Below, piece after piece: positions 30,089-37,382 of a stretch of DNA of 64,000 bases (position 1 is the stretch's first letter; each line of letters begins with the position of its first letter). The notes under the pieces were generated by a model. It saw only the letters and a program-made list of their open reading frames with translations. It was not told where the DNA came from and made no database searches. The DNA is from Verrucomicrobia bacterium S94 (GTDB lineage Bacteria > Verrucomicrobiota > Kiritimatiellia > Kiritimatiellales > Pontiellaceae), in the NCBI GenBank assembly GCA_004299845.1, contig CP036201.1:2666001-2730000 (forward strand), in the 5' to 3' direction. The position numbers were made by a program, and so were the translations under genes.

Positions 30089-30493
30089 AGCGATCCAGAC
30101 ATTCGAAATTTTATAACCATTAAGCACAAAGTACGCAAAGTTTTGGCAGGATCAGGTGCCCCACCCCGTCGCCCGGCTGAATGGCTCAGCGTACACCCGC
30201 CCGATGGGACATCGGGCCTACAGGCATACGAGTAACTGATGTGGCCTTAACAGGATACCCCTATAAAGCAAATCATCTGTTATACGGGGCAGGCCGGCGG
30301 CCGGCGATACCAGCCTGCGCCGCTGCCTCGATGGCATCGGAACCTGATCGTACCGCAGGCGGCTCGCCTGCTGCAAAACCGCACCAGCTCAACCCTTGAA
30401 AATACTTAATTTTCTCCTTACGGATCATCTAACATTTTATTATCGTGATTTATAAAATAAACAACGCGAAATTTTTCCGATATAAGGAAAAAC
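30089..30493. other. 405-bp intergenic region with dispersed repeat
   Basis: No convincing gene is seen. The stretch holds a dispersed repeat (30161-30222) that recurs at 37128-37185. An AT-rich leader follows, with AAGGAAAAAC just before the lipoprotein gene. The short open frame at 30181-30399 is repeat sequence and is not supported as a gene. Confidence 0.6.
30161..30222. repeat. dispersed repeat, copy 1 (second copy 37128-37185)
   Basis: The core CGTCGCCCGGCTGAATGGCT continues through GCGTACAC and a hairpin CCCGATGGGACATCGGGCC. The copy at 37128 has the same order with a few substitutions and one deleted base. The two copies lie in the same orientation on either side of the accessory gene/IS region. 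Confidence 0.8.
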
Positions 30494-31009
30494 ATGAGAC
30501 CAATATATTTGCTTACGATTCTCACGATTCTTGTCGGTTGTAGAGAACAAGATCCAAACAAGGAATTGATGAAGGAAGTTGCTGAAGCGTATCAAGCTGG
30601 TTCCAAAAAGATTCTCACAGAAGAGTTATCTAATGAAAACACTGAGTTCATTGCAGACACTCTGGAGCTTAGAACCCGATGTGATCAGATCATGACTCAT
30701 ATTGGAAAAGGTGAAATAGACAAAGCCTTCAGTGAGATCAAAAAATACACATTCCTCCCTAAACAAGAAATGGATGCGGCTCAAGCTGCGACCAAAAAAC
30801 AAATCTCTTTAACTCTAAATAGATTTGGTGATTTTTGCGGGTACGAATTTGTTTCCCAAAAAAATGTGAGCCCATCACTTGTTAAGTTTGAGTACATTGC
30901 AAAATGTGAAAACCATCCTCTTGTCTGGCGGTTCATGTTCTACAAAGCAGATAACAAATGGACACTAAATATTTTTAATTGGGATGACCAAATTCAGACA
31001 TTAAATTAA
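30494..31009 (+). CDS. hypothetical lipoprotein (cassette 1 of the array)
   Basis: The 171-residue product has a short signal peptide with lipobox (LTILVGC, Cys at about position 16), then a polar, Lys/Glu-rich region. The rest is a mixed domain with RFGDFCGYEFVSQKNVSPSL and WRFMFYKADNKWTLNIFNWD, which reads like a small alpha-beta domain of the DUF-type seen in bacterial lipoproteins. I do not recognise the family. The gene is noticeably AT-rich compared with the flanking core genes. Repeat R1 begins at its stop codon. Confidence 0.65.
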   Translation: MRPIYLLTILTILVGCREQDPNKELMKEVAEAYQAGSKKILTEELSNENTEFIADTLELRTRCDQIMTHIGKGEIDKAFSEIKKYTFLPKQEMDAAQAATKKQISLTLNRFGDFCGYEFVSQKNVSPSLVKFEYIAKCENHPLVWRFMFYKADNKWTLNIFNWDDQIQTLN

Positions 31010-31052
31010 TCGAACCAGAAATTAGAGCCTATCAGGACAACGTTGATTAATT
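31009..31052 (+). repeat. cassette-boundary repeat R1 (attC-like, short form)
   Basis: The repeat starts at the last base of the lipoprotein stop codon with ATCGAACCAG and ends GACAACGTTGATTAATT. The outer arms AATTAATCGAAC (31004-31015) and GTTGATTAATT (31042-31052) are complementary except for one unpaired G. It shares its start (AACCAG) and the AGAGCCTATC...ACAACG end with R2 and R3 but lacks about 125 bp of their middle. Confidence 0.5.
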
Positions 31053-31111
31053 CGGTCAATGCCTGATTCCCTTCAAGCTCACTTTGGACGTTGGATGAAG
31101 AAGGAAAAATA

Positions 31112-32481
31112 GCCTCTTCAGCAAAATCTGTGGGTTGCTTCCGGCTCCGGGAGGTCGCCCATCGTGTGAAACAGGGCGATTTCAAGCACTTCGTAGCTTC
31201 GAAAGCCGTATGCTTTTCTCGTTACCAGATTTACTTTGCGGTTCAGGCCCTCGACGACGCCTGATGAATAGGCCTTCTTGGCTTTGAACCAGTTCAGGAT
31301 CAGCGGCTGATGCCGCCGGATCGTTCCGACAAATTTTTTCATAGGATCGAGTCGCGAGCGCATGGCTCGGGTGCTCCATTTCTTGAGATACCATTCTGCC
31401 CAGTATGGGCTCGTGTAGTTCCAGAAGAGCTGGAAGCTTTCCTTGAGCAGATAGGCCCGGACGCTCTTCAGGTCGTAGGTGAGCACATCATTGAGTTTGA
31501 GTGCCTGTTTCTCGGTGAGGTTTTCCGGGTTTTTGAGCAGGCAGTATTTCGTATGTTTAAGCACCTCGTCATCGCAGCCCTCCTGCCGTAAGCGTTTGAC
31601 CTCGTCGATACGAACCTGGTTCACGGCTTTGTTCAGATGCTGAATGATGTGGAAGCGGTCGAGCACATGCAATGCCTGCGGGGCCTTTTTAGCGATGACC
31701 TTGAGGTAGGCCCTCCACATGTCGGAGCAGACGAACTCCAGCCGGGCGCAGCGATCCCGGCCGAAGGCCCGGAAGATCCGCAGCAGGGTTTTGGCCGTAC
31801 GGTCTTTACCGACGAACAGCAGGCGGCGCATCCCCGCATCGATCCGGTAGACCACGGTAAGGTATTGGTGTCCCTTGCCGTATTGGATTTCGTCCACGCC
31901 GATGGCCATCACGCCGTCAAGGTTGCGGTGCGCCAGCCCATAGTTGACAATGGCTTTGACCGAGCGGTAGACCGTGTCCCAGCTTGTGTGGAACGATTCG
32001 GCGGTTTCCTTCCACGAGAGTCTGCGTGCCCAGCGGGCAAGAAACAGCTGAAACGCTTTGGTTGTATGCGACTTTCCATCCGCCCACGGAACCTTTTCGA
32101 CCTTCACACCGCATTCGGGGCAGTTGACTCGGCGCATTCGGTATTCAAGTTGGACGGGAATATTCCAAAGCGGAACGAATTCGAATTGCCGCACCGATTG
32201 GCGGTCGTAGCATTTCCTTGGCTTGCCGCACCCCGAGCAAAGCACCTTGCCGTTGAGTCGGGGCCTGATTTCCGCCACCAACGCCGGACCGGCATTACGC
32301 AGTTCCAGACGGCAGGCGGAGTAAACAAATGATTTGAGCGGATGAACTCTGTTGAGTAGGGTCTGGATTCGCACCGGGCATACCTCTTCTGTGTTGTGCA
32401 GTTCTGGTAGACCACACATTACAGATAAGTTGCCCGGTGCGTTAATCATTATTTTTTACCCACAGATTCAGCAGAAGACCC
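31112..32481 (-). mobile_element. ISL3-family insertion sequence, complete
   Basis: The 1,370-bp element has imperfect 24-bp terminal inverted repeats (31112-31135 and 32458-32481; 19 of 24 match by eye, shared core AATCTGTGGGT). It is flanked by an exact 8-bp direct repeat GAAAAATA (31104-31111 and 32482-32489), the target duplication length typical of ISL3. It sits between the ribosome site and start codon of the DUF5362-like gene. Confidence 0.92.
31118..32449 (-). CDS. ISL3-family transposase
   Basis: This DDE transposase of 443 residues has an N-terminal zinc-finger region (LCSGCGKPRKCYD and VNCPECGVKVEKV, the zf-ISL3 pattern) and an HTH segment (RLSWKETAESFHTSWDTVYR). The catalytic DDE_Tnp_ISL3 domain has DGVMAIGVDEIQYGKGHQY, VCSDMWRAYLKV and VVEGLNRKVNLVTRKAYGFR (catalytic Glu). 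The length fits the family and no break is seen, so it may be active. Its stop codon lies within the left terminal repeat. Confidence 0.95.
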   Translation of the reverse strand: MINAPGNLSVMCGLPELHNTEEVCPVRIQTLLNRVHPLKSFVYSACRLELRNAGPALVAEIRPRLNGKVLCSGCGKPRKCYDRQSVRQFEFVPLWNIPVQLEYRMRRVNCPECGVKVEKVPWADGKSHTTKAFQLFLARWARRLSWKETAESFHTSWDTVYRSVKAIVNYGLAHRNLDGVMAIGVDEIQYGKGHQYLTVVYRIDAGMRRLLFVGKDRTAKTLLRIFRAFGRDRCARLEFVCSDMWRAYLKVIAKKAPQALHVLDRFHIIQHLNKAVNQVRIDEVKRLRQEGCDDEVLKHTKYCLLKNPENLTEKQALKLNDVLTYDLKSVRAYLLKESFQLFWNYTSPYWAEWYLKKWSTRAMRSRLDPMKKFVGTIRRHQPLILNWFKAKKAYSSGVVEGLNRKVNLVTRKAYGFRSYEVLEIALFHTMGDLPEPEATHRFC

Positions 32482-32785
32482 GAAAAATATGAATCATGAA
32501 TCAATAGTTAAGCGTCTATCTGAACCTCTTTACAATTCCAGAAAATGGATGCGCATCGCCAGCGTTCTTCTGATTGTCCAAGGCATTTTCTCAATTTTCA
32601 GCATCTGGGGAATACTAATTTGCTGGATTCCTATTTGGATGGGAGCTTTGTTGCGACAAGCGGCCAATCTTATAACCACATCATTTGAAACAAATGATGA
32701 AACTACATTCACCACAGCAATGGAAAAACTTGCCAAATATTTCCGGGTATTTGGAATTCTGGCACTCATCATGGTAGTTGTTTTC

Positions 32786-34407
32786 ATCCTAGCAGTCTGT
32801 CGGACTTATCTATTTTAGATTTAAGGCACCTACGATAGACTGGTTTAGTCTTAACGGATTAGACTTATGGCTACTCGACTCAAAAACCTCGACCGCAATA
32901 CCCCGATGCTTTTACCGCCGGATCTTCGCGACTGGATTCCTCAGAACCACATCGTTCATTTTCTGATTGATGCCGTGGAACGGCTTCCGAGCGAAAACTT
33001 CCACGTCAACCGGCGGGGAACCGGCGACGAGCAGTATCCACCGCGCATGATGCTGACCCTGCTCATCTATTGCTACGCTACAGGCCGCTTCTCCTCGCGC
33101 GTGATTGAGGAGGCATCCTGGTCGGATGTCATCGTTCGTTATATCTGCGGGGGCGACCTGCATCCCGATCACGACACCATCTGCACGTTCCGCCGTACGA
33201 ATCGCGAGCTGTTCGAAAAGGCTTTCGTGCAGGTGTTGCTTATGGCGCAGGAGACCGCCGGGCTCAAGAAGGTCGGCACCGTGAGCATCGACGGCACCAA
33301 AATCAAGGCCAATGCCAGCAGGCACTCCGCCGTCAGCTATAAATACGCAGGCGAGCAGATCGAACTGCTGCGCCGGGAGGTTGAGCAACTCACGGCCAAA
33401 GCCGAACAAATCGACAACGTTCCGCTCGACGACGGGCTGAGCATTCCAGACGAAATCGTCCGGCGCGAAGACCGAATCAAGAGCTTGGAGCAAGCCCGCT
33501 CCATCATCGAGGAGCGTTACAAAGAAGAACACCTGCAGAAACAAGCGGACTACGAAAAGAAGAAATCCAGGCGCGACGACCAACGTAGAAATGGACGCAA
33601 ACCGCGCGGCAAGGAGCCCCAGCCTCCATCGGAAACGCCGCCCGACCACAAGCAGTACAACTTCACCGATCCCGAAAGCCGGATCATGAAAGCCGGGAAC
33701 GGAAACCACTTCGAGCAGGCCTATAACGCACAGGCCGCAGTCGATACCGAAACCTATCTGATCGTCGGCCAGCTCGTCACCGACGCACCCAACGACAAGC
33801 AGCAACTCAACCCCGTGCTCGAAAGCATCCCTGCCGAGGTTGCCGATCCGGAAAACGTTCTTGCCGATACCGGCTACTACAGCGAAGACGCCGTCAGGAA
33901 AGCGGAGGCCAACGCTGGTCCGAGCGTTTATTGCGCCATGGCCAAAAGTGGACACCACGTCAGCGTCGCCGATCTTGAAAAACAATCCATCGCCCTTGCG
34001 CCGCCGCCGGACGCATCCGCAAAGGAGCAGATGGCCCACCGCCTCAATACGCCCGAAGGCAAAGCACTCTATAAAAAACGTAAGCAGACCGTGGAGCCCG
34101 TCTTCGGGATCATCAAGGAAGTCCTCGGCTTCCGCCGGTTCTCTATGCGAGGGAAAGAGAAGGCCGAAACCGAATGGAGCCTCGTCTGCCTCAGCTACAA
34201 TCTAAAGAAAATCTTCACCCTATCGGGAAGGTGCGCCCCGGAACGACCGCTCCGAACCGCAAAACAGCACGCCAAGGCCTTGGCGCGACCTATTCTCGCG
34301 TTTTCCCGGGTTAAATCCTGCATCGAGATGAATTATTTGGCTTCAGCAGAAAAGTCTTTCGTAGTTTTGCAGTCAGGCAGTGTTTTAACTCCGACAGGCT
34401 GCTAGGA
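32786..34407 (+). mobile_element. IS1182-family insertion sequence
   Basis: Terminal inverted repeats of about 23 bp are readable: left ATCCTAGCAGTCTGTCGGAC (from 32786) and right, inverted, ATCCTAGCAGCCTGTCGGAG (ending about 34407). Only a few positions differ. Flanking TTC at 32783-32785 and 34408-34410 is a possible 3-bp target duplication. The ends are assigned to within one or two bases. Confidence 0.85.
32867..34405 (+). CDS. IS1182-family transposase
   Basis: The 512-residue protein begins with the DUF772-type N-terminal domain (LLPPDLRDWIPQNHIVHFLI, YPPRMMLTLLIYCYATGRFS). It continues with VGTVSIDGTKIKANASRHSA (first catalytic Asp), a charged coiled-coil insertion (about residues 160-250), VLADTGYYSEDAV (second Asp) and RKQTVEPVFGIIKEVLGFRR (Glu). 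This order is typical of IS1182 (IS5/IS1182 DDE). It is intact, with the stop codon inside the right terminal repeat. Confidence 0.95.
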   Translation: MATRLKNLDRNTPMLLPPDLRDWIPQNHIVHFLIDAVERLPSENFHVNRRGTGDEQYPPRMMLTLLIYCYATGRFSSRVIEEASWSDVIVRYICGGDLHPDHDTICTFRRTNRELFEKAFVQVLLMAQETAGLKKVGTVSIDGTKIKANASRHSAVSYKYAGEQIELLRREVEQLTAKAEQIDNVPLDDGLSIPDEIVRREDRIKSLEQARSIIEERYKEEHLQKQADYEKKKSRRDDQRRNGRKPRGKEPQPPSETPPDHKQYNFTDPESRIMKAGNGNHFEQAYNAQAAVDTETYLIVGQLVTDAPNDKQQLNPVLESIPAEVADPENVLADTGYYSEDAVRKAEANAGPSVYCAMAKSGHHVSVADLEKQSIALAPPPDASAKEQMAHRLNTPEGKALYKKRKQTVEPVFGIIKEVLGFRRFSMRGKEKAETEWSLVCLSYNLKKIFTLSGRCAPERPLRTAKQHAKALARPILAFSRVKSCIEMNYLASAEKSFVVLQSGSVLTPTGC

Positions 34408-34513
34408 TTCTGTGCTGCCATTTTGATCCCATCATTTGCTAAAGCACGACAAGCAGCACTTGAGGCAAGCGGGCAATAGAAAAAACATCCAACCAGCCAT
34501 CTGAGGTTGTCCG

Positions 34514-35764
34514 TCAACGTAAAAACTGACTTTCTATCGGCCCGTTTAACCTAATGGCGTCGGGGTGTTCGTATATGATTTTGATTAATCCGGAGCCCCG
34601 TCTTTTGAGGAGGCTGATGTAATGCAGTTCATCGTAGGGGATCTGCTCTTTCCAGCACCGGTACAGGATGCGGATCCATTTGTAAGCCAGAGCACGAACG
34701 GCCTGATGACCCATCCCTTTTTCACGGGCCTGGATGTAAAAGGCCCGGGTCCACAATGAATGTTTGGTCGTTTCATTGGCCCATTCATGGAAACTCTGCC
34801 GGACGAAGTTGGAGCACTTCCACCGGCGGTGCACCCAATGGGCTTTTCCGCTGCGGTCGGTTCCTATTGCTGCGATGAGTCGGGGGCCGAATACTTTTCC
34901 AGTGGCCGGAAAACTTGAAATGATGGCTGCATCGTCATGGCCGGCATAGGTGCGGACGATTAGACGGTCGTAGTCCTGAATACTTTTACGCAGTTGCTTT
35001 AGCTGGGCGACCAGAGCAGGCATCTGCATGCTGAAGCTTTCCGTGATCACTTCATCCGTGGTGACCGGTTCGGCCTGCTCGATGGCCTCAAGCCGTTTTT
35101 CAATCCCCCCGGAGTAACGACTGTTTCCGTGGGTATAAAAGCTGCGAACGGTGGAAAGGCGTGAACGCTTCAGCTTTTCAAAGGAGGGCCAGCGGGTCAG
35201 AAAATCCAGCGCCAGCCGTTCGTTGAGTTTATCGCCGGCGACCTCGCAGGCCAATGGATAGTAACTTTTCAGGCAGGACCGCAGTTCATTGGTCAGCTTG
35301 CCCCGTAGATCCACCAGCTTCCGGCGATGCTCCGTCAACAGCATCAGTCTGCGGGTGTCGGGGCTGTCCGGACGCCAGGCCTTAAGTTTATGATTTGAAT
35401 CCCGGACGAGACTCATGATCAGTTCCGCATCGGAAGGATCATCCTTGGCCCCGCTCGGGGTCCAGGCGTCGCGCACCTTCGCCACGGTGGCCGGATGCAC
35501 AAAGTAGATCGTAATGAATCCGTACTGCATCAACTGGAACGCCAATGCCCCTTTAGACTGCTCAAGCCCGACAGCTATGGGCTCTCCGGGGAAACGATCC
35601 CGCAGTCTGCAGAACCAGTCATCCAGCACTTCCGGACGATGTTTGATCACCCCGTACTCGAGGGCTTGCTCTTTGGCATCCCAAAGGCAGATGTCGTGCT
35701 TTTCATCGGCCCAGTCGATACCAGGCACGACCGGAAACATTCTGTTTTTCGGTGTCTGTTTCAT
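34514..35764 (-). CDS. IS110-family transposase (DEDD recombinase)
   Basis: From ATG 35764 (AGGAG seven bases upstream) the protein has 416 residues. The N-terminal RuvC-like domain shows VVPGIDWADEKHDICLWD, the Glu in AVGLEQSKGALA and the DDPSDAELI motif (DEDD set). The C-terminal Tnp domain has IISSFPATGKVFGPRLIAAI with the conserved serine region. IS110 enzymes act with a non-coding bridge RNA that pairs with donor and target. The protein appears intact. Confidence 0.93.
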   Translation of the reverse strand: MKQTPKNRMFPVVPGIDWADEKHDICLWDAKEQALEYGVIKHRPEVLDDWFCRLRDRFPGEPIAVGLEQSKGALAFQLMQYGFITIYFVHPATVAKVRDAWTPSGAKDDPSDAELIMSLVRDSNHKLKAWRPDSPDTRRLMLLTEHRRKLVDLRGKLTNELRSCLKSYYPLACEVAGDKLNERLALDFLTRWPSFEKLKRSRLSTVRSFYTHGNSRYSGGIEKRLEAIEQAEPVTTDEVITESFSMQMPALVAQLKQLRKSIQDYDRLIVRTYAGHDDAAIISSFPATGKVFGPRLIAAIGTDRSGKAHWVHRRWKCSNFVRQSFHEWANETTKHSLWTRAFYIQAREKGMGHQAVRALAYKWIRILYRCWKEQIPYDELHYISLLKRRGSGLIKIIYEHPDAIRLNGPIESQFLR

Positions 35765-35938
35765 GTCCGTCTCCTGTTGTATTTTAAGAAGGAACACGCT
35801 GGCTCCGGACCTGCGAAAGTCTTATAGTCGGTCATCATTAGATGACGACATCCGAGTATTCGTTGTCGGCCGAAGCGCACCGACTGGATCGAACGGCTGG
35901 TTACAGGCATTGGAGTGCTTGAGGGTCGAAATTCGTAT
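35765..35938 (-). ncRNA. predicted bridge-RNA region of the IS110 element
   Basis: This is the non-coding part of the IS110 element between its end and the transposase start, the place and approximate size (174 bp) of known IS110 bridge RNAs. On the minus strand it contains AACCAGCCG (35894-35902) and CGGTGCG (35876-35882). These match the two sides of the target core in the repeat (AACCAGCC and CGGTGCG) and could be parts of a target-recognition loop. RNA existence and folding are inferred. Confidence 0.4.
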
Positions 35939-35944
35939 CCAGCC

Positions 35945-36108
35945 GGTGCGTGCCCTCTCGGGCGGAAAATTATCAATGAAAAATATAAAAGAACAGTCGC
36001 CAGGCAGCCTCCGCTCAGAGCGGTTCACAGGGCTCTCCGCTCCGGCTGCCGGATTAAGTTGGAATACCTATAAGAACGTGGAGCCTACTTGGACAACGCC
36101 CGTTGAGT
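35945..36108 (+). repeat. cassette-boundary repeat R2 (attC-like), split by IS110
   Basis: Together with 34487-34498 (ATCCAACCAGCC) this forms a repeat of about 176 bp. The R''-like ATCCAAC begins 7 bp after the DUF5362-like stop, and the 3' end is ACGCCCGTTGAGT (R'-like GTTGAGT, 36102-36108). An inner CAGCCGG/CCGGCTG stem encloses about 95 bp. It is closely similar to R3. Confidence 0.6.
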
Positions 36109-36152
36109 CAGGCTAAACACGAGAATCTTTTTAGACGCTGACCACAGATGAA

Positions 36153-36395
36153 ATGAAAATAAAATTACACATGTTTATTGTCCCGGGGTTCCTTCTTGCA
36201 GTTTTGAGTGCAACAGGATGCTCATCCTCTTTTTTAAAGAAAACAGGAACGGACATGGCCATAGCCGAATCCTACGATCAGTCATATGAAAAGAAGTCTG
36301 GAATGACAGAACGGGAATATGAACAGAAAATAAAACGTGATCAGGAACAGCGGGAAGAAGAACAAAGACAATTCAACTTAATGAGGAACCAATAA
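36153..36395 (+). CDS. hypothetical small lipoprotein (cassette 3)
   Basis: An 80-residue protein with a signal peptide and lipobox (LLAVLSATGC, Cys about residue 23). A charged, Glu/Gln/Lys-rich helix follows (REYEQKIKRDQEQREEEQ). It resembles small coiled-coil lipoproteins; no family is recognised. It lies between repeats R2 and R3 in the same orientation as the other array genes, with only 5 bp from its stop to R3. Confidence 0.6.
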   Translation: MKIKLHMFIVPGFLLAVLSATGCSSSFLKKTGTDMAIAESYDQSYEKKSGMTEREYEQKIKRDQEQREEEQRQFNLMRNQ

Positions 36396-36400
36396 AAATA

Positions 36401-36585
36401 AGCCAACCAGCCGGTGCATACCCTTTCGGGCGGAAAACGATCAATGAAAAACATAAAAGAACCGTCGTCAGGCAGTCGCCGTTTCGAACGGTTCACGGGG
36501 CTCTCCGCTCCGGCTGCTGAATTGAATCGGAATACCGAATAACCTATAAGAAATCAAAGCCTATCCTGAGACAACGCTGTTGGAT
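36401..36585 (+). repeat. cassette-boundary repeat R3 (attC-like), uninterrupted
   Basis: This 185-bp repeat runs from AGCCAACCAG (36401) to ACGCTGTTGGAT (R'-like GTTGGAT, 36579-36585). Its ends AGCCAAC and GTTGGAT are complementary at six of seven positions. The centre contains CAGCCGG...CCGGCTG and a hairpin CCGTTTCGAACGG. R2 has CCGCTCAGAGCGG at the same place, a compensated change. It shows the state of R2 before the IS110 insertion. Confidence 0.6.
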
Positions 36586-36637
36586 TCGGTCAGAATACCC
36601 AGTGCTCTGGCTCACTGTGAACATCCGCTGAATAAAA

Positions 36638-36952
36638 ATGAAAAATACAACATTCCTGATTTTATCCGTATCTTTTTGTTCATTGATTTTATTTCTGGTC
36701 AATGGTTATGGAACTATTGCGGAAAGATATTTATGGCCTAAATTTGATGAATCATTCGGAAATGAGAACAAACCATCTGCTAAATTTTACATTGGAACCA
36801 AAGCTGATATTTCATTCGCTTATAGTGGGATAACTAAAAAAAATTATGCTGGAGCATTATTTCTGGTCGATGTTCCATTTTCATTAGTTGCAGATACACT
36901 ATATGTTCCTGTTGATTGTTATTATTTACTAAAAGATTCAAATAAAAAATAA
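36638..36952 (+). CDS. YceK/YidQ-like protein (cassette 4)
   Basis: The 104-residue protein has one N-terminal hydrophobic segment and the C-terminal motif DVPFSLVADTLYVPVDCYYL. This matches the LDLPFSLVxDTxxLPxD signature of the YceK/YidQ (DUF1375) family of small envelope lipoproteins. A canonical lipobox is not evident, so it may be a plain membrane-anchored protein. The function of the family is unknown. The gene is very AT-rich and is the last of the array. Confidence 0.65.
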   Translation: MKNTTFLILSVSFCSLILFLVNGYGTIAERYLWPKFDESFGNENKPSAKFYIGTKADISFAYSGITKKNYAGALFLVDVPFSLVADTLYVPVDCYYLLKDSNKK

Positions 36953-37382
36953 TCGAAAACAACAGTCCTCGAATCCAAGCATCTCCGTATTTTACCCTTC
37001 CCCGCTCCCCATCCCTGCCCGCTCACATTACGGTGTTCCTCTGCGGACGCAGCGGCTCTGCGGGAGATCCGTTTTTCAAGCACTTTGGCAAAAAGACGCG
37101 AAGTTTTTATCCGAACCGAAAGTCCCTCCACCGTCGCCCGGCGGAATGGCTCTGCGTACACGCGCCCGATGGGCATCGGGCCTGCAATTGGGAAAAATCA
37201 TGCTGCAGGCTACGGATGCAGCCTTGCACTGGATGCCCTGTATCGAAAGGATCGGTCCTGACTTCCTTCCTTGCTAACGCAGAATGATTCCCCCACAAAG
37301 ATAGAAAAGCCACTTTACTGGATTACGGAACCTTTTAATCGTCAAGAAGGTGTGGTAGACACAGGAACGTTACTTTCTACGA
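36953..37382. other. 430-bp intergenic region with dispersed repeat
   Basis: No supported gene is seen. It contains the second copy of the dispersed repeat (37128-37185) and an AAAAGACGCGAAGTTTTTAT stretch that resembles the sequence before copy 1. The remaining part, up to the PDZ protein gene, shows nothing I can identify. Confidence 0.5.
37128..37185. repeat. dispersed repeat, copy 2
   Basis: The copy begins CCACCGTCGCCCGGCGGAAT and ends with the hairpin CCCGATGGGCATCGGG followed by CCTGCA. It is the same order and orientation as copy 1 at 30161-30222, with scattered substitutions. Confidence 0.8.

What the first reader, a model, noticed from the sequence alone, without database searches (positions are those of the whole stretch)
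34487..35944. IS110 element inside an attC-like repeat, with its empty site and a candidate bridge RNA nearby
Repeat R3 keeps AACCAGCCGGTGC intact, while R2 is split at CCAGCC, so the element ends can be read to a few bases. The element has a 174-bp non-coding region before the transposase, where IS110 bridge RNAs are made. That region contains AACCAGCCG and CGGTGCG, matching both sides of the target. IS110/IS1111-type elements are known to target integron attC sites, which also supports the cassette interpretation. The match lengths are short and could be chance.
Basis: partly seen in the sequence, partly recalled or inferred. Interest (0 to 1): 0.65.

Follow-up and report, generated by a model that had tools for sequence, protein, structure and literature searches.

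The report
RNA-guided insertion sequence splitting integron site

Summary
An IS110-group element (Tnp on the minus strand) sits in an integron attC site of a Pontiellaceae-type genome. The genome has a true IntI and 79 attC matches. The 130-bp repeats R2/R3 are not attC sites but the element's left end. The element spans 34497-36074 (1578 bp, core CT) and splits an attC between AACCAG and AACGTGGAGCC. R3 is a solo left end in another attC.

With the corrected end, the bridge RNA is 35953-35792(-). Across nine related elements, left target guides match their own flanks (1 of 40,320 permutations without this copy). Right guides match too (2 of 720), and wrong-strand controls fail.

This copy's left guide does not fit its own flank, and its transposase lacks 21 conserved residues, so it is probably dead. 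At nearly all right ends that keep their flank, in this genome and two relatives, the element meets attC-like AACCAG. attC targeting is documented for the IS1111 group; here an IS110-group element does it.

The parts
34497..36074 (-). whole IS110-group element, 1578 bp, one CT core (AG on +) counted
   Evidence: ends from attC model halves and joined-site scores, conserved left end CTTATAG and right end CTCAGATGG in relatives
34514..35764 (-). tnp, 416 aa DEDD IS110 recombinase with a 21-aa in-frame deletion just before RSGK
   Evidence: PF01548 9.3e-27; NF033542 118 bits, below its 140 cut-off; intact relative L033 154 bits; alignment A3; PF02371 10.6 vs 46.4 bits
35792..35953 (-). predicted bridge RNA, 162 nt
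   Evidence: MFE -63.7, z -4.91, 0/200 shuffles; seven-sequence consensus with compensatory pairs; covariance model hits over its full length in 15 of 388 genomes of the phylum
35937..35947 (-). target-binding loop stem, 5' arm (ACCGGCTGGAT)
35921..35931 (-). left target guide position (TTTCGACCCTC); does not match the present left flank
35897..35904 (-). right target guide (GTAACCAG; AACCAG pairs with CTGGTT)
35849..35857 (-). left donor guide (ACTCGGATG against right end CCTCAGATG)
   Evidence: read
35821..35827 (-). right donor guide (CTATAAG, exact reverse complement of left end CTTATAG)
   Evidence: invariant in the seven aligned relatives
34512..34517 (-). -35 box TTGACG in the right end, completed only in the circle
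36067..36072 (-). -10 box TATAGG in the left end, 17 bp from the -35 box in the circle
34487..34496 (+). attC 5' end (ATCCAACCAG, R'' box) cut off by the element
36075..36141 (+). remainder of the same attC (AACGTGGAGCCTACTTGGACAACGCCCGTTGAG...), 3' half decayed
36402..36410 (+). attC 5' end of the second split site (GCCAACCAG)
   Evidence: 85% identical to 35939-36068
36551..36627 (+). remainder of the second attC
31011..31094 (+). intact attC of the same small cassette cluster
   Evidence: 61 bits, E 2e-14

Best explanation
This is an IS110-group (IS621-like) insertion sequence whose bridge RNA aims it at integron attC sites. In the active ancestor, recombination of the two ends made a circle in which the right end's TTGACG and the left end's TATAGG formed a promoter for the bridge RNA and the transposase. 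The donor loop of the RNA reads the circle junction CTCAGATGG-CT-TATAG. The target loop's right guide reads CT-GGTT, the strand complementary to the AACCAG that begins this genome's attC sites, and the left guide reads the adjoining attC arm. Insertion at CT separates the R'' box from the rest of the attC, in one orientation only. Shown by sequence: the ends, the attC context, the fold, the guide-target matches across relatives and the promoter spacing. Inferred: transcription, circle formation, RNA-guided catalysis, and that the split attC can no longer recombine. This copy is probably a fossil.
For: attC: model R1 finds 79 sites, most in one array at 2305586-2343608 beside IntI (TIGR02249, 448 bits, over its cut-off); attC halves flank the element. 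Recurrence: seven more fragments in the genome; five of the six right-end pieces keep the junction and meet (A)ACCAG or one change of it (L006 reads AATCAG); L005 ends before the target, and L007 is an internal piece without the end. Right ends L033, L034 and L035 of two other genomes meet GGTT too. RNA: z -4.91; 90.7% of cells paired vs 82% shuffled, 26 cells changed on both sides vs 10 (0/500), slid controls fail. Guides: left guides fit their own targets, 1 of 40,320 permutations without the window copy and 2 of 362,880 with it; right guides 2 of 720 (two elements share one target), 1 of 120 with one of those removed; wrong-strand controls at chance. Six copies of a distant relative (G212) with identical bridge RNAs give ends and target independently, and its left guide GGCGCTCC matches the flank and core exactly. 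TTGACR-N17-TATAG at the circle junction in five of six elements. The left guides of this copy and of G035 suit the arms of array attC sites better than shuffled guides do (p <= 0.005).
Against: The window copy's own left guide does not fit its present left flank (score 3.3; five foreign targets fit better). Its attC is partly decayed, and its transposase has a deletion in the conserved C-terminal domain. There is no expression or circle evidence. Only three closely related elements with a left end (window, L033, L036) are seen in attC; for L036 the right side is lost at a contig end. Four right-end remnants lie more than 10 kb from any attC the model finds. The left-guide fit to array attC is not exclusive: G307's guide also beat its shuffles.
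Confidence: 0.9

Rival explanations
1. One reading: the element ends at 35944, the 130-bp repeats are long attC sites, R3 is the empty site, and both AACCAGCCG and CGGTGCG are target guides.
For: The CCAGCC repeat at both marked junctions and the 85% identical R3.
Against: The 130-bp repeat is absent from the ~85-bp attC sites of the array. It lies on the left end of the element in relatives of other families. attC halves begin after it. The junction without it has a weaker promoter match (8 vs 9 of 12 here, 7 vs 9 in G081). The RNA without its 5' arm does not fold. The right donor guide CTATAAG matches the outer end CTTATAG, not the inner one.
Confidence: 0.03
2. The 130-bp leader is an independent small mobile element (MITE-like) that enters attC at the same CT, and the IS inserted next to it afterwards.
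For: R3 in the window and L087 in G441 are leaders without the rest.
Against: Elements with a leader as left end occur in G081, G035, G307, G319, G126 and G437, and the donor guides match leader end plus IS right end. The two solo leaders stop at different internal points, as expected of deletions.
Confidence: 0.05
3. Insertion into attC is incidental: the element simply targets the short word CTGGTT wherever it occurs.
For: Some remnants lie far from a recognisable attC, and the left guide of this copy does not fit its flank.
Against: Copies with both flanks are split attC sites; three remnants lie close to attC; the left guides of G035 and this copy resemble array attC arms.
Confidence: 0.1

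Closest known systems
IS621 / IS110 group with bridge RNA (PMC11208160, PMC11208158)
   Same: DEDD recombinase, bridge RNA upstream of tnp in the left end, two loops, left guide on the 5' side in sense and right guide on the 3' side in antisense, CT core, promoter at the circle junction
   Different: targets attC rather than REP sequences; ~120-nt palindromic leader between the left end and the RNA; only weakly similar recombinase (PDB hit 8wt6 E 6e-6)
IS1111-attC group (ISKpn4, ISPst6, ISPa25, ISPa21; Tetu and Holmes 2008, Post and Hall 2009, as cited in PMC11187229 and PMC11616780)
   Same: DEDD/IS110-superfamily element that inserts at a specific place in attC sites and may freeze cassettes
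   Different: those have the guide RNA downstream of tnp and subterminal inverted repeats of 11-13 bp; here the RNA is upstream and no inverted repeat over 5 bp is found
ISEc21 (IS110 type, PMC11187229)
   Same: upstream non-coding region; bottom-strand match 5' of the top-strand match
   Different: different target

Membership tests
IS110 group | DEDD RuvC-like N-terminal domain | tested here: met
   PF01548 94 bits; NF033542 over its cut-off in L033, L060 and L039, 118 of 140 bits in the window copy
IS110 group | C-terminal PF02371 domain with G--P----SG motif | tested here: not met
   window copy: 21-aa deletion, 10.6 bits against a 21.3 cut-off; met in the relatives L033 (46.4) and L039 (51.4). 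Read as decay of this copy, not as another family
IS110 group | bridge RNA in the left end, upstream of tnp | tested here: met
   RNA expression not testable
IS110 group | guides: left sense on the 5' side, right antisense on the 3' side, overlapping the core | tested here: met
   eight of nine elements for the left guide, six of six for the right; in the window copy only the right guide fits
IS110 group | no long subterminal inverted repeats | tested here: met
   longest exact inverted repeat between the ends 4-5 bp
IS110 group | circular intermediate | not testable with these tools
   needs PCR or long reads; the junction promoter is only suggestive
IS1111-attC group | non-coding RNA region downstream of tnp | tested here: not met
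   tnp ends inside the right end; under 20 bp remain after the stop
IS1111-attC group | subterminal inverted repeats of 11-13 bp | tested here: not met
IS1111-attC group | insertion in attC | tested here: met
   whether it is the same position as in ISKpn4 was not tested (papers not held)
integron attC site | R''/L''...L'/R' anatomy shared with sites beside an IntI | tested here: met
   model from array attC sites; window 31011-31094 at 61 bits; split sites recovered by joining flanks

The most novel reading that the evidence does not exclude
The IS110 group reached attC targeting independently of the IS1111 group, and its recombinase also acts on CT-GG words inside its own left end, cutting out bridge RNA and transposase and leaving solo left ends locked in attC sites (R3; L087 in G441).
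Probability: 0.2. Interest if true: 0.5.

Novelty: new member of a known kind. Interest (0 to 1): 0.42.

Why it matters
attC-targeting elements can freeze cassette arrays. Here the same target is hit from the other branch of the bridge-RNA elements, with a natural guide resting on the six bases shared by nearly all attC sites of its host. The related elements with different, matching targets are natural reprogramming examples and possible starting material for bridge-RNA tools. The case also shows that solo ends can pass for empty sites and attC repeats.

Tried and rejected
R2/R3 as long attC sites (my own first reading too): rejected by the attC model. Rfam gathering scan of the window: no hits. 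L041-L043 and L061 gave no usable left end. For G126 the right end was set by eye and for G241 the core TT is a guess, so their pairs are weaker evidence; G307 and G035 lack right flanks. Tetu and Holmes 2008 is not held; the held papers that I searched or read gave no IS110-group element in attC outside the IS1111 group.

Full report
What is there. The window lies in a 4.1-Mb single-contig genome. One genome of its genus (G160) appears to be Pontiellaceae bacterium B1224, because its contig and the fetched record have the same length and match. The transposase gene on the minus strand (35764-34514) belongs to the IS110 family.

Is it an attC? The genome has an integron integrase at 2304168-2305106 (448 bits, over the cut-off), followed by an array of attC sites of about 85 bp that nearly all start with AACCAG and end with AACGTT. 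A covariance model of 17 of them finds 79 matches in the genome, most in 2305586-2343608, with outliers that include an intact site in the window at 31011-31094. The window is thus a small cassette cluster far from the integrase. The model also finds two half sites, starting at 36067 and 36543. Joining AACCAG to the letters after CCTATAAG raises the scores (R2 24.9 to 35.0, R3 10.2 to 17.7 bits). The repeats are therefore inserted DNA.

Where the element ends. In element orientation the window copy reads attC...CCACGTT|CT|TATAGG...left-end leader...bridge RNA...tnp...CAGATGG|CT|GGTTGGAT...attC R''. The same order, with leader, is seen in L033 (intact, 1633 bp), L036, L038, L039, L040 and L060. 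In five of six elements with both ends the circle junction gives TTGACG or TTGACA, 17 bases, TATAG at the same offset. R3 is a left-end fragment joined to its right flank at that word; L087 (G441) is another solo left end, broken at a different point and also followed by CT-GGTTAG. A deletion between short repeats explains both; recombination by the element's own enzyme is possible but not shown.

Copy number and targets. Besides the window copy and R3 the genome holds seven fragments (L002-L008). Six are right-end pieces and L007 is an internal piece. The right-end pieces that keep the junction continue into CTGGTT or a one-base variant of it (L006 reads CTGATT); L005 breaks off before. Right ends in G081 (two) and G035 (L035) do the same; a second, more diverged piece in L035 reads CCGGTT. 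Several remnants lie by attC sites.

The bridge RNA. Starting 15 nt earlier, at 35953, gives a two-loop structure with z -4.91; L033 gives -2.98. Seven relatives share it: 39 pairs, 15 with changes on both sides; 0 of 500 shuffles reach the observed pairing or covariation, and slid structures collapse. The model finds full-length matches in 15 of 388 genomes of the phylum and only one in the own genome.

Guides. Reading the 5' strand of the first loop in sense and the 3' strand in antisense, I scored each element's guide against every element's flank. Left guides prefer their own flank in eight of nine elements (1 of 40,320 permutations without the window copy; 2 of 362,880 with it). Right guides do so in six of six (2 of 720; 1 of 120 with one of two same-target elements removed). 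Opposite-strand readings are at chance. An independent check comes from G212, with six copies whose ends can be read from the alignment of copies: its flank GGCGCT-CC is matched exactly by its left guide and CC-CAG by its right guide. Caveats: few elements, three of them close relatives, G126's right end set by eye and G241's core assumed. In the window copy AACCAG is the right guide; the left guide TTTCGACCCTC does not fit the flank CTCCACGTT. It does fit arms of array attC sites better than shuffled guides do (0 of 200 shuffles as good; G035 p 0.005; G081, G319, G437 and G126 not), but G307's guide also passed this test, so it is supportive only.

State of this copy. The transposase lacks 21 residues directly before RSGK that its aligned relatives have, and the PF02371 score falls from 46 to 11 bits. 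The copy is probably inactive.

What is new. RNA-guided IS110-group elements and attC-targeting IS1111-group elements are both known (PMC11208160, PMC11187229, PMC11616780). I found no held paper on an IS110-group element in attC, but much of the older IS literature is not held. The element is a new member of the IS110 group, with a target so far documented for the IS1111 group.

Noticed in passing
L062, L089, L090 (G000:C1:2304168-2343608): Large integron array of some 66 or more attC sites beside IntI, in which ORF-poor cassettes of about 240 bp with nearly identical sequence recur many times, partly in tandem.
   Followed up: partly
window 30494-36952: Small attC cluster without integrase carrying several insertion sequences: ISL3-type (31118-32449), a DDE transposase with 23-bp inverted repeats (32786-34408) and the IS110 element.
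   Followed up: partly
window 30159-30208 and 37124-37173: Dispersed repeat with GCCCGATGGGCATCGGGC-like palindrome, also beside right-end remnants L005 and L006.
   Followed up: no
window 36638-36952: 104-aa cassette protein with a weak DUF1375 match; 80-aa predicted lipoprotein at 36153-36395 has no Pfam hit.
   Followed up: no
L132-L141 (G212, G318): Distant relatives of the element in 6-7 copies beside GCGGCGCT-CC-CAG, often next to a palindrome, with CC instead of CT as core.
   Followed up: partly
window 35954-36074: Conserved large hairpin between the element's left end and the bridge RNA, kept in several relatives; function unknown.
   Followed up: no
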